64,000 nt of DNA, from contig JACVRA010000152.1 of NCBI GenBank assembly GCA_019828545.1, positions 186,001 through 250,000 on the forward strand. Direction: 5' to 3'. This document shows positions 35,101-54,026 of this stretch, one piece after another. Numbering within the stretch: the first letter of the stretch is position 1; each line of letters begins with the position of its first letter. Under the pieces are notes generated by a model that had not been told where the DNA came from, did not search any database, and saw only the letters and a program-made list of their open reading frames with translations. Made by a program: the position numbers and the translations under genes. The stretch is from Paracamarosporium sp. OC-R06-R3. Lineage: Eukaryota > Ascomycota > Dothideomycetes > Pleosporales > Didymosphaeriaceae.

Positions 35101-36304
35101 TCCCTCAGCATACGATTCTCGTTCAGGACCTTTCGTACATTGGAAACAGAATCGGTGCATAACTCTTGAAGAGGCACGACTTGGACAAGGCATACCAGAT
35201 GAGGAGGTCCTTATAGGTAATGTCAATGACCAGTACAAGATGGTCGGCAACGCTGTCGATAGACGTGTATCTAAGCCCCTTGGACTGGAACTTCGGAGAG
35301 CTGTGGACCAACATACTCACCGAAAGGCCTATGCGAAGAGACAATCTGTATCCGTGGTCATTAATGTCAAGAGGCAGAGCCTGTTCGATGCACCAATGAC
35401 TGAAAACTGCACTGATGAGATACCTGCTATGCCCGTTACATCAATCGAGGGTCAATACACTGACATGGATGACGAATCTGACAGCACTCATACAATCATT
35501 AAAGCGGATATTACGAATTCTCCAAGGTCCACTTCCCAAGATGAGACGCACGACAACACAATATCCAAGACGTCAGTTAGCAGTCGCAGCAGATCAGAGT
35601 ATTGCAGTTCAATTCTAGCAGTTGAAGAGGACGAGGAGCGCCAAACATCAACTCCCAAGGTTCGGAAGCAGTTACGCCCATCGACCAGCACCGCCATTTC
35701 GAACGATTTAACACATGACGCTAACCTCGATGCGCAACCCGAAGCTGATTACGGACTTGACCTCAGAGTCAAGCCTGGTGGGGGCTTTAGCAGCAATGAG
35801 GAGATGGTTGATTACGATACTTCGTCAGCTACGCCGGCGCTCGCATGGAGCCGCACCGGCTTTCTTGGAAATCTATCAAAATCTTTTACAACGGTTGCGT
35901 CATCTCGCCTATCCTCACCAGTCACTTTACTGGATTCATCAGCTTCTCCTACAATAGGGACATCAGATTTTACGACGTCAGAGCTACCTTTACGAAACAA
36001 GCGTTCCCGAGATCAAGATGAGGTAGATAGTGAGGGGCGTTCACGTAGCATCATCTTAGGGATATCAAATCCGCGCAAACGAGCGAAGGAATCCAGTCGA
36101 GTCGCTTCGCGAGTGAGCAAATATTCGCCTACCATTGCAGGAGATTATTCGGAGCTTGCAAGGGAAGGCGAGTCGTCCCGCAAGACTCGCCATTCGGGTT
36201 CAAATTTGGAATTTGTTCCTCAGACATGGAACAGAACGGTTGAGGATCAAATCAATGTGGATGCCAAAGCGATGAAGAATCCCCACTCTAGATCATATGC
36301 TTGA
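32131..36304 (+). CDS. DIM-2-type cytosine-5 DNA methyltransferase
   Basis: Two exons, 32131-32319 and 32372-36304, 1373 residues. The N-terminal half has a BAH-like region (FRVGDVISIAPDEY; VPYRQGDTVYLKERG). The catalytic domain is complete: motif I SLFSGLGNLDKGLEAGG, the catalytic Pro-Cys in AAGSPCPGFSKLQ (near 34385), the ENV motif LENVVNMG, the Q-x-R-x-R motif SPQNRNRLIIS and motif X YKMVGNAVDRRVS. The order and sequence fit DIM-2 rather than RID or Dnmt5. DIM-2 makes cytosine methylation at H3K9me3/HP1-marked repeats. A 310-residue Ser-rich tail with basic clusters (KRSRDQDE, PRKRAKE) follows. No stops or frameshifts were seen, so this copy looks functional. Confidence 0.93.
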
Positions 36305-37860: not shown

Positions 37861-38451
37861 GGCTCTCTAAATGTACTTATCGGTAGATGTAGCATGATTG
37901 ATACATGAAAAGTAACAAGAATACAATTCAAAAGTTCTGCTACGGATCTACATTGATTGACACAACTACGATGACAGTGAACCACTCCCCCTCCAGCAAA
38001 AACCGTCGGCACATATCCATCCACAGAACATCACATCCCACGAGATCATACAGCCTTCTGCGTCGCCCACCATCATTCTTAAGCCATGTCTTCTCTTACA
38101 TTCGACGTCCCTTGCTTCACATCGTGTCCGCCCTGCTGCTGAAACTCGACCATGCATTTGGGTACGTATAATTTGCATATCGCAGTCTTTCACGCATGCT
38201 GACTATTGAACAGGGACAATCGACGGATCATGGCCTTCCCATCGACAGGAATCTGTGCAGCTCAGATCATGGGCATTCATAGGCTTGGGCAAGATCCGGC
38301 TGCGCATTTCTCACCATCCGATCGCATTCAACGCGAGGATTTAAACCGTGTCTGGTGCTTTCTTTGCATATAGGACGCTTATCTTGCGTCTTTCAATAGA
38401 TCATATAGTATCGTCACATCTCACAGCACGACACCATTACCGTCAAACAGA
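37861..38451. other. Intergenic region
   Basis: No gene seen. It may include decayed 5' parts of the regulator fragment that follows. Confidence 0.45.
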
Positions 38452-38889
38452 ATGGATTCTGACGAAGACCTGATGTGCCATGATGTCACACCAAGCCTAC
38501 CTCTCGATGTTCCCACGCATAGCATCTACATGATACTGCAGCTTAGGATGACTGAAATAGCTCGCTGGCAACACGACGCGATCTGTTCCGTGGAAAAGGA
38601 CCCGCACACCATCCACAATGTGTACGAAAAGGTTCTTGAAGCCGACGCAAAGTTGCTAGATCTCGGCCGATGGCTACCTGCCTGGTTGAAATCTGACCTG
38701 CCAATCCATGAGGAAAACCAACTTGCTCCATATCTACAGAACATGCGTCGCACATTCCGGATATCATTTGCACACAAACGCATTAAGATGAATCGCTCAC
38801 TCTTCCGCAAAGCCATGACGAATCGTATGTTCTACTACTCAACAATTGAGTTATCAAGAGACAAGGCTCTTGTGAGGATGAACGGCTAG
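38452..38889 (+). pseudogene. Fragment of a fungal Zn2Cys6-type transcription factor (middle homology region)
   Basis: A 145-residue frame resembling only the central part of fungal-specific transcription factor domains: D-E-D-L near the start, then PTHSIYMILQLRMTEIARWQ, VYEKVLEADAKLLDLGRWLP, and the His-Lys-Arg helix AHKRIKMNRSLF before YYSTIELSRDKA. No zinc cluster, linker or C-terminal half is present, and upstream sequence gives no partner exon. It lies at the edge of the amino-sugar cluster, 383 bp before nagB. I read it as a relic of a regulator; a short expressed gene cannot be excluded. Confidence 0.55.
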
Positions 38890-39272
38890 TCACGCGAAGA
38901 TGTATCATGAAAAGGGGGCAGAACACAAAGAAGGACATAGGCTGGCACTCACCTTGTCATAATCATGACTGCTCTTTCGGGTTCTAGTCTTGCTAGTCAA
39001 GAATTAATTGTTGCACATCGGTATTTTGCTTTATCCTGGACTGAACCCGATATGTCGGGCAGGTCGTCGGATAAGCCGCCGGACTACCAGCCACCTGCGG
39101 GAATGAACTTTGCACCCAATGAGTATCAATGATCCATCGGAAAGGTCGCCAAACATACGCAGTAGAACACGAGTCATCTCATCAATATGAAAGCCATTGC
39201 ATCTCGGCTTCCTGCAATTCAGTTCTTTCTTTAAATTAGGATGAGATTGCGTTCTAGCATTCCACATCCACC
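38890..39272. promoter_or_regulatory. Promoter region of nagB
   Basis: 383 bp containing the CGG-N5-CCG element at 39068-39078. No coding signal was seen. Confidence 0.55.
39068..39078 (+). promoter_or_regulatory. Shared cluster element CGG-ATAAG-CCG (nagB)
   Basis: Inverted CGG triplets with 5-bp spacing, 194 bp before the nagB start. It differs by one spacer base from the copies at 42772, 47988, 50152 and 52218. This is the form expected for a Zn2Cys6 homodimer site; which protein binds it is inference. Confidence 0.7.
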
Positions 39273-40459
39273 ATGAGACTCATTGTCCGCAACGACCCAA
39301 GCACAGCTTCTAAATATGTTGCAGAATACATATTACACCGGATAAACCAATTCAAACTAACTCATGAGCGTCCGTTTGTCCTAGGTTTGCCCACCGGTGG
39401 CAGTCCAATCGAGGTCTACAAATTGCTCGTCGAACGCTTCAAGGCGGGTGATGTAAGTGACGCTACGATCTCGAAATGTCGGTTTCTGACAAAAGGTCGC
39501 TACAGATATCATTCAAAAATGTAGTAACCTTCAACATGGTCAGTAGGTTGTATAGACCAGCTTTGAATGTAGACATAACGAGCATCTAGGACGAATATGT
39601 CGGCATACCGCGAGACCATGCACAAACATATCATTCCTTCATGTGGCGTCATCTTTTCTCACACATTGATATATCCCCCGAGAATGTCCACATCCTCGAT
39701 GGCAATGCCCCAGATCTCGATGCGGAATGTGCTCGATACGAAGCTGCAATCCAGCATGTTGGAGGCATCGACCTTTTCCTTGCTGGTATAGGCGAGGACG
39801 GCCATATCGCATTCAATGAACCTGGATCTAGTCTAGCTAGCCGAACTCGAGTCAAAACTCTTGCCTACGACACAATTCTAGCAAATTCCCGTTTCTTTGG
39901 AGACGATGTCCACCAAGTACCTCGAATGGCACTCACTGTTGGCGTACAAACCGTGCTGGAAGCAAAAGAGGTGGTGACCTTGGCCTTAGGTACTCGCAAG
40001 GCTGTGGCCCTGCAGAAATGTATAGAAGGGGCGGTGAATCATATGTGGACTCTATCTGGCCTTCAACTACATCAGCATTCGATGATAGTGGCTGACGAGG
40101 ATGCCACGCTTGAGCTGCAGGTGAAAACCGTGAAGGTAGATTCTGGTTGCCCTTCAATACACGACACATCGAGTTGACATTTTCACTAGTACTTTAAGTC
40201 GATTGAGAACATCGCTCGCCAGCAGGGATTCGAGTATACATTGCCCAGAGGCCTTCTAACCGAGAAGGAAGATGTGAAACTCGATGATCATGTGGTTCAG
40301 GAGAGAATTGTCTCACTTCCGAACTCAAAGCCTGATCTGTCTGACGCTTCTTTGCTACGGCCAGATGGTCCTGTTAATGCACCGCTATCGATTCGGCCAC
40401 TCACTCCTGAGCCCACACTGGATAACATGGGTTCTCGCGTCACCTCAACTAGATCATGA
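39273..40459 (+). CDS. nagB: Glucosamine-6-phosphate deaminase (isomerase)
   Basis: Four exons, 39273-39452, 39506-39538, 39590-40135 and 40190-40459, 342 residues; exon 2 is only 33 nt. Family motifs are intact: [15 protein letters not shown] in the phosphate loop, TFNMDEYVGI with the catalytic Asp, [20 protein letters not shown], and [11 protein letters not shown]. The enzyme turns glucosamine-6-P into fructose-6-P and ammonia, the last step of amino-sugar catabolism. A 60-residue tail after the core is poorly conserved. It is first in a block that also holds MurQ, AnmK and NagA homologues, and its promoter carries the shared element. The fungal orthologue in the GlcNAc pathway is often called dam1. 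Confidence 0.95.
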
Positions 40460-40711
40460 TGCTAGAGCGGCGATCAGAGAGGCATAGGAAAAGAGAGCGA
40501 AAACGCTGTATCATAATGATGTTTGGAACCAATAATCATATTTGGGCTCTTTAACAGTATGTTATACAGGTTAAATAGCGAGGTTATGCTGCACTATAGA
40601 CGAAAATGTAAACTACCTTACCCCTTAGTAACTATCAAGTATCAGGAAGAGCGCAGTATCGGTTCTTGAACCCTCTAGAGTCTATTGTTTGTTTGGTTAT
40701 CCACATGAATC

Positions 40712-42651
40712 CTATGATATCTCTTCTTCAACACCATCTTGTACACCATAGTCTCGAGATCCACTAGGACTTTCCAACAAAATAGCTGACGTAGCAAGAT
40801 TGTACGGCCAACCACCAGAGAGTTGCAGCCAGATAGATTGAATATCTATAAATCTTGCAGATGTATCGCCTGTAGCAAATTTGATAGAAGCCTGTAAGTG
40901 TGGAAGAGAGATAAGTGAAGGGTAGCCATCTCCAGGCTGAGGGCGGAACTCATCTGTCGAATCGCCGTCGGGTAGGGTTGAGCCTGGGCTAATCATGGCC
41001 TCGCGTATTTCACCAAGGTAAGCTGCCTTGTAGAGGGCCTGCATAACATTAAGAGCCATTAACCATTGCTTGGCGGCCTTCCACTCAGATAGCCATGACG
41101 TGAAGTGCTGCTCGATCAGGTCTAAATAAACTCTGGCTCTCTCTTGGAATTCATTGCTTGAGTAGAATTCATCTTGCGCATGTTGGAGCCACAGGAAAGT
41201 GTTTGCGACAATTAGAAGCGAGGCAGCAACCCAGATATTTTGCAATGAACTTTGAACTTTCCCCTGCTTTCGTTCAAAGTCCGTCAGGCATGAAAGCATA
41301 TCTCCAAGCTCTAATGCATTAGAGACGCAGATTTCTATAAGTGACTGCTCTCGGTGTAGGTAGGGCCAACCGGCACCGTCTATAGCATCACATAGTTGTG
41401 TATAAATAGCCAAATGAGGAAGATAACACTGGTGAGCGACACAACCAGCACTGCGAAGCAGAAAGTGCATGGCTACGAATGACCTTCCCGTTCCAAGATC
41501 ACATTGAATCTGGAAATTGGGAATACTCCATCGAAGGTTAGGGTGTAGTGAGCTAGTCCACGCATCAAGGGCACTGGACCGATGAGAGAATACGCTTCGG
41601 GAGTCAGTTGGTATGAACTTGTCCAGATTCCTTCGCGAATAAACGGCGAAGTCAGCGAGATCGCTCCACAGGCAGATAGTCCTAATGAGATAGGGACCCA
41701 GGCCCAAATCTGACGGACGTTGATAGAACAAGAGATCATGCAGGCCCACACCTCGAGTCTCCTCGTGATATATCAATGAGATGTCTGTGCCGGGAAGCGG
41801 TATGCCAACATTCTCAAGATCAATAGTGCGGTGTTTAGCGAGGAAGTAGGCCAGCGCTCTGTCAAATACTAAACAAGCCCAAAGGATGCGCCTACGCACT
41901 TCCTGTTCCCTGAGATTGTGTTTTTTATGAAAGTCCTTGTTCAGGCGCATGATCTCAGCCATTCGTATGGCTGTGCCTGCGAACATCCAATGTCGGGAGC
42001 CCGAGTTGGAGACAAGCTCGGCGTGTGCAAGCACAAGGTTTGCTTGTATGTGAGTAACTAGACAATCGTGTCAGCGAGGTGAACATGGCTAGTAGCGGTG
42101 GAGTTTACCGGTCGGTTGATCCGACGATGCCTTCGCAAGGGATCGAGCCACCTGCAGGTAATGGGTGGATACCTCAGAACCCGACGGAAGTCGGAACAGG
42201 TCGTATGCCTTATCGGCGTCTAGATATCGGCCGCTGAGAGCGATAATGGAGGATGCAAGGAAAGTATTCTGTATGCATTTTTCTTCGAAGCTCGGGCGGT
42301 GGTCAAAGGAGCAAAAGTCACTAGCAAAGTGACGATCCAAAAAAAGACTCAAACATGCTTTGATCCCTTCTGGGCCATACTCGGGAAGCTGCACATCGAC
42401 GACAGGCTCAGGCGAGGCCGTGCTGGTGGTTTGAAAGCTGTCTGGCATGGACCAGACGCAGGCGATGTTTCTGTTGGCGCACCGTTTGCACCGAGGGCGC
42501 ACACCATCGCACTTCGACTTACGTCGACGACTGATCCCGTCCACAGACGTTAGTGTGCATCTTTCTACAGTGTAGAGAAAGATCGCCTAGATTGGGATGA
42601 ACATACCATGCGTCGCATGCCTGTGGGGTCCTCACAAACGTTCGAGGCATG
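40712..42651 (-). CDS. Zn2Cys6 transcription factor, candidate cluster regulator
   Basis: Three exons on the minus strand: 42651-42608, 42530-42109 and 42057-40712, 603 residues. The zinc cluster is assembled across intron 1: the second Cys of ACDACRRRKSKCDG is split TG|T. KCDGVRPRCKRCANRNIAC completes the six cysteines. A fungal-specific transcription factor domain follows (FLDRHFASDFCSFDHRPSF; GSRHWMFAGTAIRMAEIMRL). It sits inside the amino-sugar block, divergent from the secreted hydrolase, and has a CGG-N5-CCG element 120 bp upstream of its own start. That placement suggests autoregulation and control of the block; both are inferences. Confidence 0.88.
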
Positions 42652-43167
42652 CTGTCGATGCAAAATTGGTGGGCATGCAAGTCTGGACGGGAGACCCGAT
42701 GGGCCTTTGGAAAGTCCGGGGTTCAGTCGACCTATCTAGCAAATAGCGCTTATCGGAAGACTTCCTTGGGTCGGGTTATCCGGCCGCAAGCCCCGCAAAA
42801 ATAGGCGTAGCGGCTAATCCATGCAAGTGCCTTCATCTCATAACAGTCTAAACTAGAGTAAGGCCGTCGATGCTTTCCCCACTACTGTGAAGTCTGGTGA
42901 ATGTTTGATTCGGGGCCGCATCCTTGCCATTGTACTGGCAACGTACAAGAATCATCACCCAGGTTTATCTAAAGCTTATCGAAAAGTGATAGGGTTGAGA
43001 TGCATGCGGGTTATGTTTTCCCCACGAATGTTGCTAGTGCTATCGCGTCTCGAAGCATGCTATTTCATTATATATCACTATATCTCAGTCTCTCTTCGTC
43101 CTAATGCTTCATTGAGCAATTCAACTTTTCTCGGCATCAAAGTCATTCGTACCCAATTCTCCTCGCT
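42652..43167. promoter_or_regulatory. Divergent promoter between regulator and secreted hydrolase
   Basis: 516 bp with the shared element at 42772-42782. No coding signal was seen. Confidence 0.6.
42772..42782 (-). promoter_or_regulatory. Shared cluster element CGGATAACCCG (regulator / hydrolase)
   Basis: Read on the minus strand it is identical to the copies at 47988, 50152 and 52218. It lies 120 bp before the regulator start and 385 bp before the hydrolase start. Confidence 0.75.
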
Positions 43168-44454
43168 ATGAAATTTCAACTCTCTGCCACAGCTGTCTTT
43201 ACGGTCATAGCATTTCCGGCATCTGCAGACTATGTGCTCCGGCGTGGGAGTCCTTCGGCGGTCGGGATGCTATCCCAGCCACTGATATCTATGGTTCAAA
43301 ACCTCTCATCGTATAACACTCCGGCCGACTACGGGACCGCGTCCCACAACGAGATACGGGCGCTCGAACCCGGGTCAGCCAATCTCGTAGCTCGCCATGG
43401 AGTCATCGTGAGCGCTTTTGCTGTGGGAAAGAGGAAGCTATATGCCGATGCCAATGGTACTTATCTCGATGCAGCGGAGCAGGAAGAGACAACCCTTGAC
43501 ACCATCTATGACCTTGCCAGTATCTCAAAACTCTTCACTTCTATTGCTGTACTTCGGGAAGTGGATAATGGACGAATTCACCTCAATCAAACCGTGGCAT
43601 CGTACCTACCCGAGTTTGCGGCCAATGGAAAGGACGACATAAGGGTGATCGACCTACTTACCCACAGTAGCGGTCTCTTGCCTTTGCCCATCCCTGATCT
43701 CTGGAAGTCGAATTATTCATCAATAGATGAACGGATCGCGACATTGCTTAATCTGGCTCCTCAAGAGCCGCGACGCACTAAATTTATTTACTCTGACATT
43801 GGCTTCATGACACTCCGCTACCTGTTAGAACAAGTAACAGGGATGAACCATGAGCTGCTTGTCTATTCTTTCACCATTCCACTGGGCATGAGATCAACCT
43901 TTTTCAATCGTGGCAGCCTCGAGGGTCCCCGCAACCCGTTTTATCACCGTACTGCACCGACCGAATTCGAAATAGAGGCACAAGGACCAGAGGAGCCAAA
44001 ACGCCCGCAACCAGTCCGAGGAACTGTTCATGACGAAAATACATGGGCTCTAGGAGGTGTCTCTGGTCATGCGGGTCTGTTTTCCACGGTTGAAGATGTT
44101 GCTATCTTCTGCCAAATGATCCTGAACAATGGAACATACAAGGGCCATCGGGTGCTGTCAAAAAAATCCGTGGATCTCATCTTCACCGATTTCAACGGGC
44201 AATTTCCTGGTAATAATTACGGAGCAGGGTTTGCGCTCAACCAAACCTACACGCAGGGCAGTATGCAGAGCATGCAAACCGCAAGTCATTCTGGTTTCAC
44301 CGGCACCACCCTTGCAATCGATCGGCCTTCTGGCACATTCTGGCTCCATTTTAGTAACCGTGTGCATCCGAGTAGGCATTGGTCAACGAATAACCCTGCT
44401 CGCGAGGCAATGGGCTATTGGGTGGCGAAGAGTCTTGGGAGGAAGGTGGATTAA
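43168..44454 (+). CDS. Secreted beta-lactamase-family serine hydrolase, AmiE-like (candidate muropeptide amidase)
   Basis: Single exon of 428 residues. The first 20 form a signal peptide ending FPASA. Penicillin-recognising motifs are complete: S-x-x-K as S118-I-S-K121 in DLASISKLFTS, Tyr208 in FIYSDIGF, and a late HSGFTG in place of KTG. The segment VHDENTWALGGVSGHAGLF (about 287-305) is typical of PF00144 serine hydrolases, which include the Bacillus subtilis muropeptide-recycling amidase AmiE (YbbE) as I recall. Several N-x-S/T sites fit secretion. Beside MurQ and AnmK genes, an extracellular role in freeing peptide from MurNAc is a reasonable inference, but other esterase or peptidase roles are possible. 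Unlike its neighbours it has no introns. Confidence 0.85.
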   Translation: MKFQLSATAVFTVIAFPASADYVLRRGSPSAVGMLSQPLISMVQNLSSYNTPADYGTASHNEIRALEPGSANLVARHGVIVSAFAVGKRKLYADANGTYLDAAEQEETTLDTIYDLASISKLFTSIAVLREVDNGRIHLNQTVASYLPEFAANGKDDIRVIDLLTHSSGLLPLPIPDLWKSNYSSIDERIATLLNLAPQEPRRTKFIYSDIGFMTLRYLLEQVTGMNHELLVYSFTIPLGMRSTFFNRGSLEGPRNPFYHRTAPTEFEIEAQGPEEPKRPQPVRGTVHDENTWALGGVSGHAGLFSTVEDVAIFCQMILNNGTYKGHRVLSKKSVDLIFTDFNGQFPGNNYGAGFALNQTYTQGSMQSMQTASHSGFTGTTLAIDRPSGTFWLHFSNRVHPSRHWSTNNPAREAMGYWVAKSLGRKVD

Positions 44455-44765
44455 TCTTTGTAGGTTCTTTTATAAAAGTGTCTCCACAGAGGATCAATGT
44501 AAAGTCTTGCACTTTTATTGACAAGCCGTCGACAGTGGCTATGTAATTTGGTAGAATGGTTGTGTGTTAATAGTAGGGGTAGTATCACCACAGCGTATGG
44601 GCAAAGAATATTAGCTACCTTGATTTAACTTGGACGTTTCAATCAAAAAGGCATATTTATTTTGATACTTCGAAATATGCTACATGACATTATAAGAACG
44701 AGCTTCTTTCTCACTTATCGTAGGCCCGTCTAGCTACTAAATGCACTACAGCGATAGGATGATGC

Positions 44766-44781
44766 TACAGCGGTACTACAG
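44766..44781 (+). repeat. 16-bp direct repeat, copy 1 (TACAGCGGTACTACAG)
   Basis: Exact copy recurs at 45122-45137, 356 bp downstream, within a gene-free region. May be remains of a mobile element; no coding or terminal structure was recognised. Confidence 0.65.
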
Positions 44782-45121
44782 CTTCGTCAGGCTGTCCCCA
44801 GAGACTCCGCGTGTTAACATAGCTGAGGCTCTTGCCGCGATAGTTTTGGAAGGGTATTAGGAACGACATTCGAAGTTGTCTGTGGAGGTGTCTGTGGAAG
44901 GATTGCAAGGCTCTGCAGCCTGCATGAAATATTCGACTACCACCTTACCTGTTGAGCCATGACTCCTCACTATTCTCACCAAACCATACTTTTGCAATGA
45001 CTCCCAGAGTCGTTGTCTCCTATAATCTCAACAGCTTAGTAAAGGTATAGCACTCAGTGCGCAGCTCTGCTGTGGTACTGACTCACTAGGGTCCCACGCT
45101 GGGCCAACACCAACTCGATCG

Positions 45122-45137
45122 TACAGCGGTACTACAG
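45122..45137 (+). repeat. 16-bp direct repeat, copy 2
   Basis: Identical to 44766-44781. Confidence 0.65.
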
Positions 45138-45529
45138 GATTGCATGTGCAATTATCTGGACAGGAGCGTGGAATGCATTCCTTAGGCTAGAGTCTCTTTT
45201 ACTGACAGATCTTGACAGTCAGAAGAGTGACCATCTAAAGTCTTATCAAGACTTATCCAGAACCAATCTAGGGCTTGGGGTAGCCTACGATAGCAAATCC
45301 TAAATCAATATTTCTCCAGCCGTCTAGTACATGAACTAGTAATTCAAAGCGCGGGTACTTTAACGAAATGTTTCAATTGATTCCGTATTAACTTTCTGTT
45401 AGATCTAATCTATGCAGGGTCTCGTGATACTACTGCTATGTCCTACAGACATGTGTATCACGCGAAGTGATATTATACTTGAAGGGGACCAGGAATGTGA
45501 TATATGGATCAGGAGGCTTCACAATGAAT

Positions 45530-47568
45530 TCAACCAAAAGCCTTTTGTTCTTGTTTTCTCTTCTCCTGCAATTCGAAGCCTTCATCTTTAGCTTCGGCAT
45601 CCATATCAGACCTAAGGGGATCCAGTCGGGATGTATTCCTATCCTGCCACCAAACGACACAGATCCAAGCAGCAAGACTGACTGATACAACAACCATAGC
45701 GATGGTGCCCTTTCGAAAACCCTAAGAGCCCAAGTCAGCATCTTAGAGTGGGTACTAATCAATATATAACCTACGGTAGCGGCGTCGTTGACCGGATAAA
45801 GTGTGATACCCCAAAACGAAAAGAGGACGGAAGAAGCACCTATACAGTCTCAGTATGTCCCAGTGTTTACAGAAGGTATAATTACCATTCATGGAATAGA
45901 GAATCACAGCTCTCGAAGCGTCGTCTCCATTTCGGGCTAGGATTTTGTTCGCCCAGGTGAACACAACGGGCTGAATCAGGTAAGCAGTTCCGGCAAGATC
46001 TTTTCTGGTCAGCTATATGTCGCATAGATACGAACGCGATCGGACATCTCACAAAAAGCAGCCATCTTAGCTTGTGTACCAACGAAGTCCCAGCAAAGAA
46101 GAACAGTGCAGGTGATGATCTGAACACCACAAGCGAAAATGCCGTACGGAGCATGGACTCCGGTGGCATCAATTGCCACAGAAGTGCACAACGTGAGAAC
46201 AATACCTAAAAAATAGGATTAGAATCGTTCTAGACTCTTTCTCGATCGAAATACGAACCTATAGCGGTTATTCCTAATGGATAGGTGTTATTTTGCGGAA
46301 CAGTGAATAAACCAGAAGCCTTCATCCAGAGAACCATGCAAGTCTGAGTTGAATAAGCCTCGAGTGCTCCCCCGAGCATCCAGAATATGGTAAAGATCCA
46401 GCTTCAAAGAACCGTCAGCATGAGTTCAAAGCATTCTTTTAAGACGTACAAATTAGCCGTGAAAAGGACTCTCCTAATGATTGAGGTGCCAATCTTGTGT
46501 CCATCAGGGCTTTTAGGTGGCAAGCGACTCAAAGCAAGCTCACGTTCGTTTTCCTTCAGATAGAAGGCTTTTGTCGTTTCAGGTAAATCGGGGAAAAATA
46601 GAAATCCAAAAACCGCAACAGGAAGGGTAACGATGCCGTCGATTATAAAAGACTGGGGTTGTTCAATCAGCAGGCAAATTTGTGCAGGATTGTATTAAGA
46701 ACCTTACCCATCTCCAACCTGGGAGGCCAGAAACGCCATCCATCGTCTTCCAAATTGCTGTCATCAAAATACCTGGGAGCTAAGATCAGAGACACGCTAT
46801 AAGACGGCCACGAATAACGTACCAGCGAACATGGTCCCAACCATTCCTGAAGCCTGAAAAAGACCAACCCGCTTCCCGACCTCGGGCCCTTTGTACCAAC
46901 TTCCGATGATGTATTGCGTGCCGCTATATGTGGATGCTTCGGCAATGCCCTGGAAGAAGCGTACTGGTGCAAGCTGGGCGAAGCTGTGGCAGGCACCACA
47001 TGCCATAGTCAGGAGAGCCCAGACAAGCGTCATCAAAGGAAACCAGATGCGAGGAGCTACCTTTTGGATGACAAGGCCGTGGGGCACCTGACCAACAATA
47101 TCTAGTAACGGTCAGTGTCTTTTCAAGGCCCCCGGTTGAATCATAATAGCATCCTACATCCAACTGCCAGGCAAGTGACCAGAAGGTTGTACTGGTCACC
47201 TGTAATATTTATATCCTCTTTCATTCCAGATACATAAGCGTTTCCAAGAACGGCGCGGTCTGCGTTGTTAAGTAGATGACTTTTGTCAGTTCGAGGTCAG
47301 GCTACTAACCGAGGTAGTTGAAGAAAAAAGCGACACAGCAATATGTCTTGAAAACAATCAGAAATCCGACTGATCACGCATCAATGGGCGCACCGTGTGA
47401 TATGGGGCATACCAGTATAAAAAAATCAATCTTTCGCAACAGCTAGATGAGATGTCAGTTAGCGATTCTCAGCGAGATTCATATGCTTTCGCCCACCTTT
47501 CGCTCTTCGGGGGAATCGGGGGCTTCACCCCAGACTGCATTGCGCAGCTGGTGAAGTTTGATACCCAT
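45530..47568 (-). CDS. Major facilitator transporter, anion:cation symporter (Dal5-like) family
   Basis: Twelve exons on the minus strand: 47568-47497, 47442-47413, 47346-47310, 47259-47158, 47101-46823, 46772-46708, 46652-46450, 46401-46259, 46205-46053, 45999-45886, 45839-45775, 45721-45530. Phases close to 484 residues. Family marks: ERKLLRKIDFFIL at the start, FNYLDRAVLGNAYVSGMKED, GQVPHGLVIQKVAPRIWFPL, VRFFQGIAEASTYSGTQYII, and FIIDGIVTLPVAVFGFLFFP with DLPETTK. Relatives carry allantoate, nicotinate, biotin and other organic anions with protons. In this block the cargo could be MurNAc, anhydro-MurNAc or a muropeptide fragment, all carboxylates; that is inference. It shares a promoter with murQ. 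Confidence 0.9.
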
Positions 47569-47955
47569 GCTGGTCAAGAGGACGACTACTCTTAAAGGAT
47601 AAAGTTCAACAGCCCTGAATAGCTTACAGTAACAACTTCAATTTGTCGGATGAGAATGCAACAAGATGTTCCAAGTTCTCATTTGTAGTGACTGCGCGGG
47701 GTTTTAAAGAAGTTCAGATGTAAAGTAAGACGTCACGTCTGGGGAACACCCCTATTCAACCCCGCTCCAAAACCGTATCTTCTGTGGGGAATCGGATCTC
47801 TTCTTGGCATGTATATCGGTAAGATATCTGAGAACAGATTAATCAGTCTTCCTGCCGTAGATAGCGATTCGAAAGCTGATATTCTCAACTTAATTTTAGC
47901 TCCACTGAGTCATGCAATTCGGGCCGCGTGATGTAACCAATACGGTTGGCGCAGT

Positions 47956-47966
47956 CGGGGTATCCG
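47956..47966 (-). promoter_or_regulatory. Shared cluster element, variant CGG-ATACC-CCG
   Basis: Minus-strand reading differs by one spacer base from CGGATAACCCG. It lies 21 bp from the perfect copy at 47988-47998, so the two could bind two dimers. Confidence 0.6.
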
Positions 47967-47987
47967 CCCTTGTCCTTTGTCGAACGG

Positions 47988-47998
47988 CGGATAACCCG
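47988..47998 (+). promoter_or_regulatory. Shared cluster element CGGATAACCCG (transporter / murQ)
   Basis: 286 bp before the murQ start and 419 bp before the transporter start on the other strand. Confidence 0.75.
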
Positions 47999-48284
47999 AT
48001 TTTGATCTTCCAAGAATTGCTTCCTCGCAGAATAGGATCGGATGGTGTTTGAGGCTCATTGGATGAATGCATTCACGAATTTTGCGGGTCATGCAAATTC
48101 GGGATCGGATTGCGGGAAAACACTCCATCGACGATTGCCTACGCGGACCACTTGAGTCAGACATCCACGACAGAATTCTAGTTGGTCCTACCGTACCATC
48201 AAGGTTTCTACAATCTTCATTACTGTCATCGAGAAGAATTTCCCAAGGAGTTTTTGCGGCACTGCCATTTCACCCATCTTCAAC

Positions 48285-49611
48285 ATGTCACCTGCGGCCC
48301 TCTACGAGTCGTCACCCTCTATCCAAACACATCAATTCGCTGGCTTTGGGTCCGATGGTGCCAAAACAGGAGAAAATATTACCATAGGCGCCAACTCCAA
48401 CGAGAGCACTGGGCTGTCCTCTGAGTCCCTCGCTGGCCTTCAAACGGAGCAAAAGAATTCGAGAACAGCAAACATAGATTCAATGTCTTCATTAGAATTC
48501 TGTCGTAAGGACTATGGAAGCGTGTGGTTATATAGATATCTAACAGAGAATCAGAAGTCATGAATGAAGAAGATGCCAGCGTTGCGCAGGCAGTTAAGAC
48601 TTGCTTACCGCAGATTGCAGCGGCTATTGATATCATTGTGCCTCGACTTTTGGTTGGTGGACGGGTGATATATACAGGAGCTGGCACAAGTGGGCGGTGC
48701 GTTGGTAAACTCCAGCAATTTAAGGATGTTAGATTACTAATTCATTCGTAGGCTGGGGATTCTAGACGCATCAGAAATGTGAGGCCACTCAACTGCGTTT
48801 ATGTATCTCACCCAGCTGATCAAATGCAGTCCTCCAACGTTTTCAGCCCCAGTAGGCCAGTTTGTCGGCTTAATTGCTGGAGGAGACTCTGCTATTCGCA
48901 ACGCCGTCGAAGGCGCCGAAGATTCAGAGACAATGGGCGCATCCGACCTCGCGAGTTTATCACCACCTATCAACAAAGACGACGCCCTGATAGGTATTGC
49001 ATCTTCAGGGAGGACGCCTTATGTGCTGGGTAGCTTGAAACATGCTCGCTCAGTGGGAGCTGCAACAATAGGATTGGCTTGTGTCCAGCCAAGCTCACTC
49101 CGAAGCTCTTGTGATATCTCAATCGAGTGTGTTACTGGGCCTGAGGTAGTGACAGGGAGTACTCGTCTCAAAGCGGGGACTGCAACGAAGATGGTTAGTT
49201 CTACAATGCAAATTTATATGCTCACTTGTTGTGGCTCACAAGACTATCCAGATTCTGAATATGATTTCGACCGGGTCTCAAATACAGACAGGAAAAACAT
49301 ATGGAAACCTAGTGAGCAACGTACCGAAATGTAATGTTCTTATCTAATTTTAGCAGATGGTTGACTTGCAAATGTCTAACCGGAAACTCCAAGATAGGGC
49401 ACGCCGCGTTGTGCGCATGGTGGTACCACCATCGTCAGCCCTTGATATTGAGAGCGAAGAGGTCCTAGATTCTGTGCTTATGGATTGCGATGGCCAGGTT
49501 AAATTAAGCATTCTGGTGGCGACCCTGGGTTGCTCTCCAGCGCAAGGGAAGGCGCTATTGGATGCTTCGTCGGCCTCGCTAAGACATGCCTTAGCAGGAA
49601 GATGCGGGTAG
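48285..49611 (+). CDS. murQ: N-acetylmuramic acid 6-phosphate etherase
   Basis: Six exons, 48285-48504, 48555-48696, 48752-48778, 48830-49193, 49252-49311 and 49357-49611, 355 residues; exon 3 is 27 nt. After a 46-residue extension the core begins LAGLQTEQKNSRTANID. It has the SIS-fold sugar-phosphate motif YTGAGTSGR, DASEIPPTF, AVEGAEDS, GIASSGRTPYVLGSL, GSTRLKAGTATKM and LMVDLQMSN. The two glutamates reported as catalytic in E. coli MurQ (Glu83, Glu114) align with Glu129 and Glu160, and the 31-residue spacing is kept. MurQ cleaves MurNAc-6-P to GlcNAc-6-P and D-lactate. The last intron ends TAGCAG, a tandem acceptor. Related glucokinase regulatory proteins lack this compact form, so the etherase is favoured. 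Confidence 0.93.
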
Positions 49612-50397
49612 TCAGGTCAATACTTTGCTATTCGACTACATTGTACACAGAATTTGTTCATCCGTTGCCGTACACTATGGTCCTTATTTCTTGCGAAACT
49701 TCTTTCCTGCACATAGAACCTTTCTAATTCAGCGGTCGCCCACACTAATGTCCACTTTCTATCGTTATATCCCTCGGTCAAAGGACACAACGTCTTAGTC
49801 TTGGCACTACGTTCAGAGCATTGAAATCCGCACAGCAACCCTCTTCTTGCTAATACAAAATCTTTGATAGTTTACTATCGTTGACTAAAATCTACTAAGT
49901 TTCAGAAAGAATGGTCCTATGATTTCCAGAACTTACGTACTTGTCCTAGAGAAGAATTCTAGGTATATACAGTTCAGAGAAGCCTGCTGTAAGGCTTAGG
50001 GCTGTGAAATTATTTTGAAGAACATGTCCGCGTAAGCAACAGAGACAAGCGCCAAGAGCTACAAGCCGCGCAGGCACTAGGTAACGCCACTAGTAGTTTT
50101 TCGTTCGAATTGAGCAGGGCCACTAAGCAGGCCCTAAGGCTTTCCGCACGGCGGATAACCCGTGAATTACCCCATCCATTCTTATCGCAACCCGCGTCTT
50201 TTAACATAGCAATAGAGTCTTTCCTCATGGATCAGGATTAGTACTCAGACACCAGGATATCTATAGCTATCGGTGGGCAAAGCCGACGTAGCATGTTCCT
50301 AGTCAGGAATTTGGCCATCTTAAAGGCGACGCGATCGCGTTGATAAGACAAAGACAAAATTACAGATTCAGCCTGGACGCTAGACTTGATTGTCATT
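49612..50397. promoter_or_regulatory. Promoter region of anmK
   Basis: 786 bp with one shared element at 50152-50162 and no coding signal. Confidence 0.55.
50152..50162 (+). promoter_or_regulatory. Shared cluster element CGGATAACCCG (anmK)
   Basis: Perfect copy, 235 bp before the anmK start codon. Confidence 0.75.
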
Positions 50398-51873
50398 ATG
50401 GTGACTCTCAATGTTCTCGGGCTTAACTGCGGCACCAGCATCGACGGTATGTGTGCTGCCATAGGCATTCCACCGTAATGCTGTGACAGTGTCCTCACAA
50501 CATGGCATTCCGCTCACAAACACTTAGGTGTCGATGTTGCGCACTGCCGTATAACCTCTAATACATCTTCAGCTGATGTAAACATTGAGGTCCTAGCATA
50601 TGCCGAAGTCCCAGTCGATCCTAGGCTACGGTCACAAGTCCTGCGTCTATGTCGTCCAAATCAAGAAAGTGCTGCAACCTCTATGGCTGAGGTTTGCGAC
50701 CTGAACTTCGCTCTTGGAAGAGAGTTTGTACGTGCTATACTGGAGTCAGGCATCGACCTAGCTGCAGTCGATATTGTTAGTAGTCATGGACAGACACTCT
50801 GGCATAATCCATTTGGGGAACATCGCTCCACTCTCCAATTGGCTGAACCCGCCGTAATTGCTCAAAGGACGGGACGGTACTATATTCAATGTCTGAGGTC
50901 TGTTTTGCGTGAGCTAATAGAAAATGCAGAACCGTCATCAGTGGTTTTCGGGTTGCTGAACTGGCTGCCGGGCGGCAAGGGGCTCCTTTGTCAGGCTTCT
51001 TTGAGGCTGCACTGCTCACCGACTCACACGTCACCCGGATCGTCCAGAATATTGGTGGAATAGGTACGTTGAATTTTTCGAGACACAAAAGATGCCGCTA
51101 TTGATAAAATCGCCTTATAAACAGGTAATGCGACCGTCCTACCAGCCTTGAACTCTTCAAGGCCCCAAGAACCGCAACCAACATATCTGGCTTTCGACAC
51201 CGGTCCTGGAAACGTTCTAATAGATGCTACAATGCGTATCATAACCAAGGGAAAGCAGCACTACGACCACGACGGCCTTCTCGGTGCCAGAGGCGAGGCA
51301 GACATAGACGAGTCGGTTATCAACAATTACCTAGCTAGCGAGCCCTACTTCAGATTGAACCCACCTAAGACCACAGGACGCGAGCTGTTCTCTGACGATG
51401 TTGCTAAGCAACTAGTCGACAAATTGAAGGCTACAGGGAAAACCCCAGAGGCAATTGTTGCGACAGTCACACGTATAACGGCAGAATCAATCGCCAGAGC
51501 ATACAACCAATTCGTTTTACCACGTCTAGGAGAGAAAGGGAAAATCGACGAGATTTACATATGCGGCGGTGGAGCATACAATCCTAATATCCTAAAGCAT
51601 TTACAGAGATGCTTTCCAGAAAGTCGAGTGTTGAAGCTCGATGACGCGCCCGTGAAAATCGATCCCAGTGCAAAGGAGGCAGTCTTGTTTGCATTGCTAG
51701 GCTTTCTTGGGGTTTGTGGGCGCACGGTACCTATCGCGGCGGACTCGGAGACTCAGGATCCTGCTATTTTGGGCGTGATCACTCCCGGCGCAAACTACCA
51801 TGAGGTTATGAGAAGAGTGGTCAATGATACGGAATTCTCTGGCAAAAGGGTTCTCGGACGCGTTGTTATATAG
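50398..51873 (+). CDS. anmK: Anhydro-N-acetylmuramic acid kinase
   Basis: Four exons, 50398-50446, 50528-50876, 50930-51063 and 51125-51873, 426 residues. The ASKHA-type kinase motifs are clear: LNCGTSIDGVDVAHC at the nucleotide-binding start, SSHGQTLWHNP, LAEPAVIAQRTG, QNIGGIGN, AFDTGPGNVLIDA, NPPKTTGRELF and ICGGGAYNP. AnmK uses ATP to phosphorylate and open 1,6-anhydro-MurNAc, giving MurNAc-6-P, the substrate of the neighbouring MurQ. One difference from bacterial enzymes: where they usually read D-x-A-A-G-G-Q-G-A-P, this protein reads VAELAAGRQGAP, with Glu for the Asp. I believe that Asp is the catalytic base but cannot confirm the alignment. It is longer than E. coli AnmK (369). Confidence 0.92.
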
Positions 51874-52545
51874 GGGTCGCAAATTGTTCGTATGTGGTGT
51901 GTTGATTTTGTTCTGTCAATTACGATACACATTTCAATTCTACCTTGAATTGCATTCCAAACGTAGTCGCTGGATACACGGTCTAAATTCATATTGATCT
52001 TCAAACGGAATCCGATCGACTCGCTACACTATAGCAATCAATTTGACAATTACGGCGGACGATTTGTGCTCATGGAAAAATCATCCATTCCCCGCATCTT
52101 TCCTTATCATCTTCTGATAATCGTGGCGGTTTCTTCTAAGATTCACATGGGCTAGAATAAACGGGAAATCCGATGGCATGAGTATTCCTGAGAAGACGAA
52201 ACTGATACCAGTATGTGCGGATAACCCGCCAACCCGAGCGCCGAAAGCTATGTCTCAATAGGCAATATTCCGCCCCAGATCGGTACATCAAGACTATCTG
52301 TGATTTGGACACGCTTGAAGTATTTTCAGCTGCGGTGAACGAAACCACTGGTGCTTTTAAAGTTAGGCAGGGTGTTCATTGTATCGTGTCTCCGTTCTCT
52401 TATTACAGACTACCAAGTACTAGAAACTGCCCTCACTATTTAAAGGGAGACACCTTGTTTTACCAAAGATACCCCAGGTATCCAACAAAGAATCTACCTG
52501 GCCGCGCCTGTTTTGGTTTTGTTTCATATACTGATCGAATTAGCA
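51874..52545. promoter_or_regulatory. Promoter region of nagA
   Basis: 672 bp with the shared element at 52218-52228. Short frames here are not protein-like. Confidence 0.55.
52218..52228 (+). promoter_or_regulatory. Shared cluster element CGGATAACCCG (nagA)
   Basis: Perfect copy, 317 bp before the nagA start codon. Confidence 0.75.
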
Positions 52546-53970
52546 ATGCCTACTGTTGCCTGCTCCAGCGGCATTACCAAGTTCACGAATTGCCGACTTG
52601 TCCGAGATGGGGAATTCGCATATGAGGATCTCTGGATAAGCTCAATCACTGGCACTATTCTATCTGGTCAAGCAACCTTTTTTGATACTGGAAGTCTTCC
52701 CGATCAAGTTATTGACCTCGGAGGACGCATCGTCTCTCCTGGCATGATCGACGTACAACTAAACGGAGCATTCGGCTTCAACTTCTCGACATTGATGGAA
52801 GATATCAAAGAATATCCACATGCCGTGGCGGATGTAAATAAGAAGTTGGTTTCTATTGGGGTCACATCGTATGTTCCGACTTTGACTAGCCAGACGCCAA
52901 ATCTTTATCAGACGGTGAGAGAATCACGACATACACTGCAGCTCGAATACAGCTGATAATCGATGCTAGGTGCTACCTCACCTTCGCCCAAGCGGCACAA
53001 GGTCTGCTTATGATGGTGCAGAATCGCTTGGGGCACATGTTGAAGGTCCTTTTCTAAATCCAAGCAAGAACGGAATCCACAATGCAAGCGTGCTTCAGCA
53101 AGCAAGAAGCCTCCAGGATCTTGAAGCATGTTACGGTGCAGAGAATTTAGGCGCTCTAGAACGACCGAGCACCTACACAGGATCTATTAAGAAAATAACT
53201 CTTGCTCCAGAATGCGGTAACATGACTCAGATCATTCCAGAACTGACATCCCGAGGGATTGTCTGCTCAATAGGTCACTCTGAAGCCACTTACGAGGAGG
53301 CATCGAATGCTGTCGCTGCAGGAGCCACAATGATCACACACATGTTCAACGCGATGAGGCCGCTACATCACCGTAACCCAGGAATCTTTGGGGTTCTCGG
53401 AATCACTGCTGAGGCCCTTCCGAAACCTTACTTCGGCATCATTGCTGATGGCGTTCACCTCCACCCTACTGCTGTCAACATCGCTTTCAACACGCATCCC
53501 GATGGTCTCATCCTAGTCACAGATGCTATGCATCTGGTGGGACTTCCCGATGGTGTATATACATGGACCAACGGTGACATAGAGAGCAGGATTGTTAAAG
53601 TCGGGCCGACTTTACTTCTTGATGGAACAGACAAGATCGCGGGAAGGTTAGTACCTCATCTATTGATCAAAAACTACTGCTAATATATATACCTCAAAGT
53701 TCTATCACTCTGATCGAATGTGTAAACAATTTCCTGCAGTGGTCCAACACTTCGATCAGCAAGGCGCTTAAGGCAGTTACTGCTACACCTGCAGCTATGC
53801 TAGGCATCCAGAATAACAAAGGAAATTTAAACATAGGCGCTGATGCCGACCTGGTCATTTTCTCTGAGGAGAGAACAAACGATGGCAAAATCCAGTTGGT
53901 AATTGACGAAGTGTGGAAGTTTGGTACCCAAGTTTATGCACGAGAAGGAATAAAAGAATATAAAGGGTAA
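52546..53970 (+). CDS. nagA: N-acetylglucosamine-6-phosphate deacetylase
   Basis: Three exons, 52546-52914, 52970-53646 and 53700-53970, 438 residues. The open frame continues upstream of the chosen ATG, but the homologous region starts after 52546. Amidohydrolase-fold motifs: SPGMIDVQLNGAFGFNFS, HVEGPFLNPSKNGIH (Glu148), LAPE (Glu204), SIGHSEATYEEA (His226), THMFNAM (His247), ADGVHLHP and LVTDAM with the catalytic Asp near 308. The enzyme releases acetate from GlcNAc-6-P, feeding NagB. It is the next step after MurQ in a MurNAc route and also the standard step in GlcNAc use. Fungal literature calls it dac1. Its stop is 57 bp from that of the next gene, which is convergent. Confidence 0.95.
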
Positions 53971-54026
53971 GATACAGATGGGGAGGGTATTTATATTAAG
54001 AAGTAGAATAACATATTTAATTCTTT

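What the first reader, a model, noticed from the sequence alone, without database searches (positions are those of the whole stretch)
39068..53970. Fungal gene cluster predicted to catabolise bacterial peptidoglycan amino sugars (anhydro-MurNAc to fructose-6-P)
Within 15 kb are homologues of AnmK, MurQ, NagA and NagB, which form a continuous route: anhydro-MurNAc to MurNAc-6-P, to GlcNAc-6-P plus D-lactate, to GlcN-6-P plus acetate, to fructose-6-P plus ammonia. An MFS importer, a secreted AmiE-type hydrolase and a Zn2Cys6 regulator lie among them. Fungi do not make muramic acid, so MurQ and AnmK make sense only for use of bacterial walls. The known fungal GlcNAc cluster has deacetylase and deaminase genes but, as far as I recall, not this set.
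Basis: partly seen in the sequence, partly recalled or inferred. Interest (0 to 1): 0.93.

Follow-up and report, generated by a model that had tools for sequence, protein, structure and literature searches.

The report
Fungal gene cluster for bacterial-wall sugar
A fungus carries seven neighbouring genes with one shared DNA motif in the gaps upstream of them, and together they are predicted to import muramic acid, the hallmark sugar of bacterial walls, and break it down to ordinary sugar, which would let the fungus use bacteria as food.

Summary
Intact genes, six of seven with introns, for NagB, a Zn2Cys6 regulator, a PBP4B/YfeW-like serine hydrolase, an MFS transporter, MurQ, an AnmK-family kinase and NagA lie at 39273-53970. 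MurQ, NagA and NagB each pass an NCBIfam equivalog cut-off. The five upstream gaps carry CGGATAACCCG (CGG-N5-CCG): four exactly, one with a change. The genome (43.1 Mb) holds 10 exact copies, four of them here. A GlcNAc cluster with all six gene types of the known RON1 cluster lies elsewhere in the genome, without AnmK, MurQ or the motif, so this is a second system with its own NagA and NagB. MurQ is linked to AnmK in 10 of 29 named rows of relatives, Fusarium to Naematelia. The main rival, a levoglucosan kinase, is weakened: the cluster kinases form their own clade and keep a His and a Gln that bacterial AnmKs have and 58 of 58 levoglucosan-type rows lack. Substrate, import, secretion and regulation are inferred, not assayed. 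In bacteria the route is known; ten searches of an open-access library showed me no report of it as a fungal gene cluster.

The parts
39068..39078 (+). Motif copy CGGATAAGCCG (one change), 194 bp before nagB ATG
   Evidence: 11 copies of this form in the genome, pattern read backwards 13
39273..40459 (+). nagB: glucosamine-6-phosphate deaminase, 342 aa, exons 39273-39452, 39506-39538, 39590-40135, 40190-40459
   Evidence: model; TIGR00502 over cut-off; E. coli NagB 1cd5, E 5.9e-106
40712..42650 (-). Zn2Cys6 regulator, 603 aa, exons 42607-42650, 42109-42530, 40712-42057
   Evidence: model; PF00172 and PF04082
42772..42782 (-). Motif CGGATAACCCG, exact, between regulator (121 bp to ATG) and hydrolase (385 bp)
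43168..44454 (+). Serine hydrolase related to PBP4B/YfeW, 428 aa, one exon; N-terminus looks like a signal peptide (by eye); SISK, YSD and HSG motifs
   Evidence: (PRK03642 E 1.1e-45, 156.3 against a cut-off of 385)
45530..47568 (-). MFS transporter, 484 aa, 12 exons; nearest solved relative a D-galactonate transporter
   Evidence: model; 6e9n E 2.2e-7; TIGR00893 E 4.3e-34, below cut-off
47956..47966 (-). Motif copy CGGATACCCCG (one change)
47988..47998 (+). Motif CGGATAACCCG, exact, between MFS (419 bp to ATG) and murQ (286 bp)
48285..49611 (+). murQ: MurNAc-6-phosphate etherase family, 355 aa, exons 48285-48504, 48555-48696, 48752-48778, 48830-49193, 49252-49311, 49357-49611
   Evidence: model; TIGR00274 over cut-off; 1nri E 3.7e-80, 4lzj E 5e-80
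50152..50162 (+). Motif CGGATAACCCG, exact, 235 bp before anmK ATG
50398..51873 (+). anmK: AnmK-family kinase, 426 aa, exons 50398-50446, 50528-50876, 50930-51063, 51125-51873
   Evidence: model; PF03702 E 6.1e-73
52218..52228 (+). Motif CGGATAACCCG, exact, 317 bp before nagA ATG
52546..53970 (+). nagA: GlcNAc-6-phosphate deacetylase, 438 aa, exons 52546-52914, 52970-53646, 53700-53970
   Evidence: model; TIGR00221 over cut-off; 7nut E 5.4e-87

Best explanation
This is a seven-gene fungal cluster predicted to take up and burn the muramic acid of bacterial peptidoglycan, most likely as 1,6-anhydro-MurNAc, under its own Zn2Cys6 regulator, which would act through the CGG-N5-CCG motif found in all five gaps upstream of its genes. 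Proposed order, each step inferred from family and place: the PBP4B/YfeW-like hydrolase, probably exported, trims peptides from muropeptides; the MFS carrier, whose nearest solved relative carries an acidic sugar, imports the free muramic sugar; the AnmK-family kinase opens the 1,6-anhydro ring and phosphorylates it to MurNAc-6-P; MurQ cuts the lactyl ether to give GlcNAc-6-P and D-lactate; NagA deacetylates; NagB gives fructose-6-P and ammonia. Shown directly: the genes with intact frames and introns, the motif, the separate GlcNAc cluster, and MurQ-AnmK linkage in other fungi. Not shown: any activity, substrate, secretion or regulation.
For: MurQ, NagA and NagB each pass an equivalog cut-off; AnmK passes Pfam. 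MurQ keeps DASE (from residue 126) and VEGAED (from 156), aligned to the solved protein HI0754. CGGATAACCCG is the only 11-mer in 4 of the 5 gaps; 300 first-order Markov resamplings never had one in more than 2. Of its 10 genomic copies 4 are here; the 6 others lie inside stop-to-stop frames, 5 of them of 456 aa or more and one of 138 aa, while no cluster copy lies in a frame over 139 aa. A GlcNAc cluster with NagA, GH3, Ndt80-type regulator, hexokinase, MFS and NagB is on contig C18, with no CGGATANNCCG in the 30 kb fetched there. MurQ hits only this locus, apart from one partial 27% hit. In bacteria a MurQ relative lies in the fetched flanks (4 kb) of 42 of 80 AnmK loci. The E. coli murQ operon also joins MurQ with a transporter and YfeW/PBP4B (PMC5061867, passages).
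Against: No expression or enzyme data. The kinase is nearer in sequence to levoglucosan kinase (351 bits against 156 for P. aeruginosa AnmK), lies with it on one side of a branch against bacteria, and passes none of 14 NCBIfam AnmK cut-offs. No SLT domain, Amidase_2 or PF01869 sugar kinase was found in the genome, so the anhydro sugar would have to come from outside and plain MurNAc has no obvious kinase; the two GH25 lysozyme genes would give reducing, not anhydro, ends. For 18 of the 29 named rows the listing shows no MurQ link, and in Mariannaea MurQ and AnmK are on contigs of different length; both lists stop at 120 rows. The motif is not enriched genome-wide: 10 copies against 9 of the pattern read backwards and about 20 expected of any 11-mer at equal base use; only its crowding here is unusual. 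It was noticed by reading, before the tests. About 51% of the window lies in stop-to-stop frames of at least 200 aa, so that the outside copies fall in frames is only mild evidence.
Confidence: 0.8

Rival explanations
1. The kinase is a levoglucosan (or other anhydrosugar) kinase and its place beside MurQ is incidental; the cluster is a general amino-sugar locus.
For: The closest solved structures are Lipomyces levoglucosan kinase, 351 bits against 156 for AnmK; fungal proteins named AnmK were tested for levoglucosan kinase activity, that of Rhodotorula toruloides being the most active of six (PMC9476349, passages).
Against: The genome has a separate levoglucosan-type paralogue on C89. Cluster kinases form their own clade (SH-aLRT 97). 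His109 and Gln120 are the residues of 97% of 33 cluster rows and 99% of 72 bacterial rows, but Leu and Thr in 58 of 58 levoglucosan-type rows. MurQ linkage recurs in other fungi; reading the two listings I saw no contig length shared by a MurQ row and a levoglucosan-type row.
Confidence: 0.1
2. The MurQ homologue is a GKRP-like regulator of a hexokinase, not an etherase.
For: The best Pfam model is named GKRP_SIS_N; some fungal homologues are annotated as glucokinase regulator.
Against: 355 aa, against 619-638 aa for the 6 GKRP sequences listed; etherase-type structures score 251-273 bits, GKRP 65-73; it passes the etherase equivalog cut-off; DASE and VEGAED are kept (that they are catalytic is recalled).
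Confidence: 0.04
3. The route is the same but the real substrate is reducing MurNAc, or muropeptides freed by the fungus's own GH25 lysozymes or taken from endobacteria, with the kinase a side branch.
For: Two GH25 genes in the genome; other fungi have MurQ in one protein with a PF01869 kinase, which suggests MurNAc entry there.
Against: No PF01869 kinase was found in this genome; the AnmK-family gene is the MurQ neighbour here and linked to it in 10 of 29 named rows.
Confidence: 0.15
4. Bacterial contamination or a recent bacterial insert.
For: MurQ and AnmK are bacterial families in origin (recalled); the best-scoring non-fungal hits are bacterial.
Against: Six of the seven genes have introns, MurQ five and AnmK three; 27 fungal MurQ rows are one side of a branch (SH-aLRT 99).
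Confidence: 0.01

Closest known systems
E. coli murQ operon (murQ-murP-yfeW, with murR) plus AnmK, and the B. subtilis cluster murQ-murR-murP-amiE-nagZ-ybbC
   Same: MurQ with a transporter, a PBP4B (E. coli) or AmiE (B. subtilis) hydrolase and a regulator; AnmK feeding MurQ in E. coli (PMC5061867 and PMC5371407, passages)
   Different: Eukaryotic genes with introns; MFS in place of a PTS transporter; Zn2Cys6 protein in place of the MurR repressor; AnmK-family kinase and private NagA and NagB in the same cluster
Fungal GlcNAc cluster of Trichoderma reesei (nag3, ngt1, hxk3, dac1, dam1, ron1; PMC4950302, passages)
   Same: Contains NagA (dac1), NagB (dam1) and an MFS carrier
   Different: No AnmK or MurQ; Ndt80-type regulator instead of Zn2Cys6; a cluster with its six gene types lies elsewhere in this genome. 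'muram' and 'peptidoglycan' occur 0 times in the paper's main text
Fungal levoglucosan kinase (Lipomyces starkeyi, 4yh5, 4zxz)
   Same: Same kinase family and FDTGPG motif
   Different: Separate clade; His109 and Gln120 replaced; no MurQ link seen in the listings
MurNAc-6-P etherase in other eukaryotes: rumen ciliate Entodinium transcripts (PMC6925433) and murQ in Camponotini ants (PMC13320244), passages read
   Same: MurQ genes or transcripts in eukaryotes; the ciliate paper, which also lists an anhydro-sugar kinase transcript, proposes use of MurNAc from bacterial walls
   Different: No co-regulated gene cluster in the passages read

Membership tests
MurQ (MurNAc-6-phosphate etherase) | Score over the NCBIfam equivalog cut-off TIGR00274 | tested here: met
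   352.9 against 302
MurQ (MurNAc-6-phosphate etherase) | DASE and VEGAED motifs with the two glutamates held to be catalytic (role recalled) | tested here: met
   present in the model, aligned to 1nri
MurQ (MurNAc-6-phosphate etherase) | Release of D-lactate from MurNAc-6-P | not testable with these tools
   needs an enzyme assay
AnmK family (Pfam PF03702, which also takes in levoglucosan kinases) | PF03702 over gathering score, FDTGPGN motif | tested here: met
   246.5 against 24 bits; motif
AnmK proper (anhydro-MurNAc kinase) | An NCBIfam AnmK equivalog cut-off | tested here: not met
   0 of 14 listed models passed, best 350.5 against 387; the levoglucosan-type paralogue scores 362.7 in the same model, so these models do not separate the two kinds. 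I therefore call it an AnmK-family kinase that likely works like AnmK
AnmK proper (anhydro-MurNAc kinase) | Residues shared with bacterial AnmK but not with levoglucosan kinase | tested here: met
   His109 and Gln120: cluster 97% of 33, bacteria 99% of 72, levoglucosan type 0 of 58 (by pattern, HGQT-x-x-H in 32 of 33, 69 of 72 and 0 of 58). That they touch the substrate was not tested
Levoglucosan kinase | HGQT-x-W-L and (S/A)(A/C)LTM(A/G)E signatures of the levoglucosan-type rows | tested here: not met
   0 of 33 cluster rows for both; 58 of 58 and 54 of 58 levoglucosan-type rows
NagA and NagB | TIGR00221 and TIGR00502 equivalog cut-offs | tested here: met
   244.1 against 225.65 and 389.5 against 236.9; the narrower PRK11170 and PRK00443 models are not passed
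PBP4B/YfeW | NCBIfam PRK03642 cut-off | tested here: not met
   best model by far (1.1e-45, next 1.2e-16) but 156.3 against 385: a relative, not a member
B. subtilis AmiE | MurNAc-L-alanine amidase activity | not testable with these tools
   needs an assay; no AmiE sequence was compared either
RON1-type fungal GlcNAc cluster | Ndt80-type regulator, GlcNAc hexokinase and GH3 in the cluster | tested here: not met
   none among the seven genes; these are on contig C18 instead

The most novel reading that the evidence does not exclude
Many fungi own a dedicated, separately regulated nutrient pathway for the muramic acid of bacterial walls: bacterial AnmK and MurQ genes taken into the fungal line, joined to duplicated NagA and NagB, an acidic-sugar carrier and a PBP4B-like hydrolase, and wired to a private Zn2Cys6 switch, so that fungi eat, and perhaps sense, bacterial peptidoglycan.
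Probability: 0.72. Interest if true: 0.9.

Novelty: new variant of a known kind. Interest (0 to 1): 0.82.

Why it matters
Muramic acid holds carbon and nitrogen of soil bacteria (recalled), and I found no description of a fungal gene system that uses it (paper searches, in an open-access library only). If right, the cluster gives a genetic handle on how fungi live off and compete with bacteria, a marker for this trait in genomes, and a regulator that would report on bacterial walls. It also divides the fungal AnmK family into two kinds with different expected substrates, which most annotations seen here do not do.

Tried and rejected
Levoglucosan kinase, GKRP-like regulator and contamination were tested and set aside or lowered (see rivals). 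Wider regulon: the 6 other exact motif copies lie inside stop-to-stop frames (5 of at least 456 aa, 1 of 138 aa), so no further member emerged; no CGGATANNCCG in the 80 kb fetched around the two GH25 genes, the C89 and C85 kinases, the C96 NagA relative and the GlcNAc cluster. Bacterial donor: not named; Ktedonobacter L041 has adjacent AnmK (44%) and MurQ (53%), but its MurQ is not resolved next to the fungal branch. Fungal DNA of relatives is not in the collections that I could use, so motif conservation in other species and full seven-gene synteny were not tested; linkage was read from locus tags, proteins annotated as one, and equal lengths of the longest contig, which is a proxy for the same contig. 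The three AnmK and levoglucosan kinase structure papers that I asked for are not held, so pocket residues are unchecked. A first nagB model with a border one base off gave a broken frame and was corrected. Paper searches: 6, 7, 22, 31, 32, 43, 58 and 60 gave listings in which I saw no fungal muramic acid cluster; two gave none. Passages were read in seven papers. No structure was predicted: I judged that it would not decide the substrate. Rows left out: AnmK tree, 17 levoglucosan-type hits of 58 plus the own C89 protein, and 34 of 80 bacterial rows, 8 of 80 bacterial rows by length; MurQ tree, 26 of the fungal hits, 12 of the bacterial database hits and 30 of 42 neighbours of AnmK.
Full report
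What is there. The window lies on contig C41 of a 43.09 Mb fungal genome. Placing exons by hand with GT-AG borders gave seven intact genes between 39273 and 53970 (all re-read): nagB (3 introns), a Zn2Cys6 regulator (2), a single-exon serine hydrolase, an MFS transporter (11), murQ (5), anmK (3) and nagA (2). It has SISK, YSD and HSG. MurQ, NagA and NagB each pass an equivalog cut-off. The kinase passes Pfam AnmK but none of 14 NCBIfam AnmK cut-offs, and those models score the levoglucosan-type paralogue as high, so they cannot tell the two apart. The introns speak against bacterial contamination.

A shared upstream motif. CGGATAACCCG, an inverted CGG-N5-CCG of a kind that Zn2Cys6 proteins bind (recalled), occurs exactly at 42772, 47988, 50152 and 52218 and with one change at 39068 and 47956. 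All five gaps upstream of the seven genes have a copy, 121 to 419 bp before the start codons; two of these gaps serve two divergent genes, so that the hydrolase or the MFS gene itself is controlled is less sure than for the others. It is the only 11-mer found in four of the five gaps; 300 first-order Markov resamplings never had one in more than two. The genome has 10 exact copies, four here; the pattern read backwards has 9, so the motif is not frequent as such. For ten sites placed at random the chance of four or more in this stretch is 3e-12, about 1e-8 if any stretch of this size counts. The motif was picked by eye first, so the resampling is the fairer figure. The other six copies lie inside stop-to-stop frames, five of 456 aa or more. 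The one-change form CGGATAAGCCG has 11 copies genome-wide. That the cluster's own regulator binds the motif is inference.

A second, separate system. The genome also holds a GlcNAc cluster on contig C18: a NagA relative (58% over its main matched stretch), GH3, Ndt80-type regulator, hexokinase, MFS and a NagB relative. These are the six gene types of the T. reesei cluster nag3, ngt1, hxk3, dac1, dam1, ron1 (PMC4950302, passages); orthology gene by gene was not tested. Searches for AnmK and MurQ hit nothing on C18, and the 30 kb fetched there has no CGGATANNCCG. So the window cluster has private copies of NagA and NagB. A search with MurQ found this locus and one partial 27% hit.

Relatives. 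MurQ relatives run from Fusarium (71-79% identity) through Clonostachys, Cephalotrichum, Sporothrix and Penicillium riverlandense to Naematelia, a basidiomycete yeast (its class recalled); AnmK likewise. Among the 29 named rows of the cluster-type kinase clade (P0121-P0152), 10 have MurQ on a contig of identical length or in the same annotated protein: F. nematophilum, F. oligoseptatum, F. lateritium, F. decemcellulare and Paramyrothecium (MurQ then AnmK in one protein), Dactylonectria, Penicillium riverlandense, Cephalotrichum, Clonostachys rosea and Naematelia. In Mariannaea the contig lengths differ; for 18 the listing, cut at 120 rows, shows no link. Hydrolase relatives at 50-60% are listed from many other fungi, so the family itself is not specific to this cluster. 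In bacteria 42 of 80 AnmK loci hold a MurQ relative in the fetched flanks.

Which kinase. In a tree of 85 rows the cluster kinases (33) and levoglucosan-type kinases (18) are separate groups (SH-aLRT 97 and 100), together opposite 34 bacterial rows (100) (quick method, unrooted). Across 33 cluster, 58 levoglucosan-type and 72 bacterial rows, His109 and Gln120 are kept in cluster and bacteria and are Leu and Thr in all 58 levoglucosan-type rows; the solved P. aeruginosa AnmK has the same His and Gln. Columns shared by bacteria and cluster but not levoglucosan type number 10, by bacteria and levoglucosan type but not cluster 7, and by cluster and levoglucosan type but not bacteria 9, so overall divergence favours neither; the argument rests on the two residues, the clade and the gene neighbours. 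C89 holds the levoglucosan-type gene; the C85 copy lacks HGQT and has VVCGPGT for FDTGPGN.

Origin. The 27 fungal MurQ rows form one side of a branch (99), compatible with one transfer from bacteria; the donor is not resolved. Dactylonectria, Cephalotrichum and Penicillium riverlandense MurQs group together near Fusarium (85-86), a weak hint of later transfer among fungi.

How it most likely works. E. coli turns anhydro-MurNAc to MurNAc-6-P by AnmK and this to GlcNAc-6-P plus D-lactate by MurQ (PMC5371407 and PMC5061867, passages), and its murQ operon includes a transporter and YfeW/PBP4B. The fungal set matches that logic with eukaryotic parts. The MFS protein's nearest solved relative is a D-galactonate transporter, which fits an acidic sugar but is a distant match. 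SLT, Amidase_2 and PF01869 were not found in the genome; other lytic transglycosylase and amidase families were not searched. So anhydro-MurNAc would come from bacteria, which shed anhydromuropeptides (PMC6448482, passages), and the cluster hydrolase is the one peptide-removing candidate that I found. Nine FAD-oxidase_C matches at five places leave room for a D-lactate dehydrogenase; none was identified as such.

Verdict. I rate it a new variant of a known kind, because the chemistry is bacterial and known while a regulated fungal cluster for it was not seen in the ten paper searches listed.

Noticed in passing
P0047, P0049: In Penicillium angulare and Beauveria bassiana MurQ is annotated in one protein with a PF01869 sugar kinase, which suggests a second fungal entry for plain MurNAc.
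   Followed up: partly
L037 (contig C85:474492-475508): An AnmK-family paralogue that lacks the HGQT motif and has VVCGPGT for FDTGPGN, so probably not a kinase.
   Followed up: partly
window 32369-36304 (+): Open frame of 1311 aa with BAH and C5 DNA methylase domains, a fungal DNA methyltransferase.
   Followed up: no
window 38374-38889 (+): Short open frame next to the cluster without a Pfam match; by eye it resembles the end of a fungal transcription factor, possibly a remnant.
   Followed up: no
window 38001-54000: G+C is 46-51% in 2-kb steps over the cluster, against 47-60% in the rest of the window.
   Followed up: no
contigs C225:8544-9083 and C206:25087-25620: Two GH25 lysozyme genes; no CGGATANNCCG in the 10 kb fetched around each.
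   Followed up: partly
P0018, P0020, P0025 in the MurQ tree: MurQs of Dactylonectria, Cephalotrichum and Penicillium riverlandense group together near Fusarium, a weak sign of transfer between fungi.
   Followed up: no
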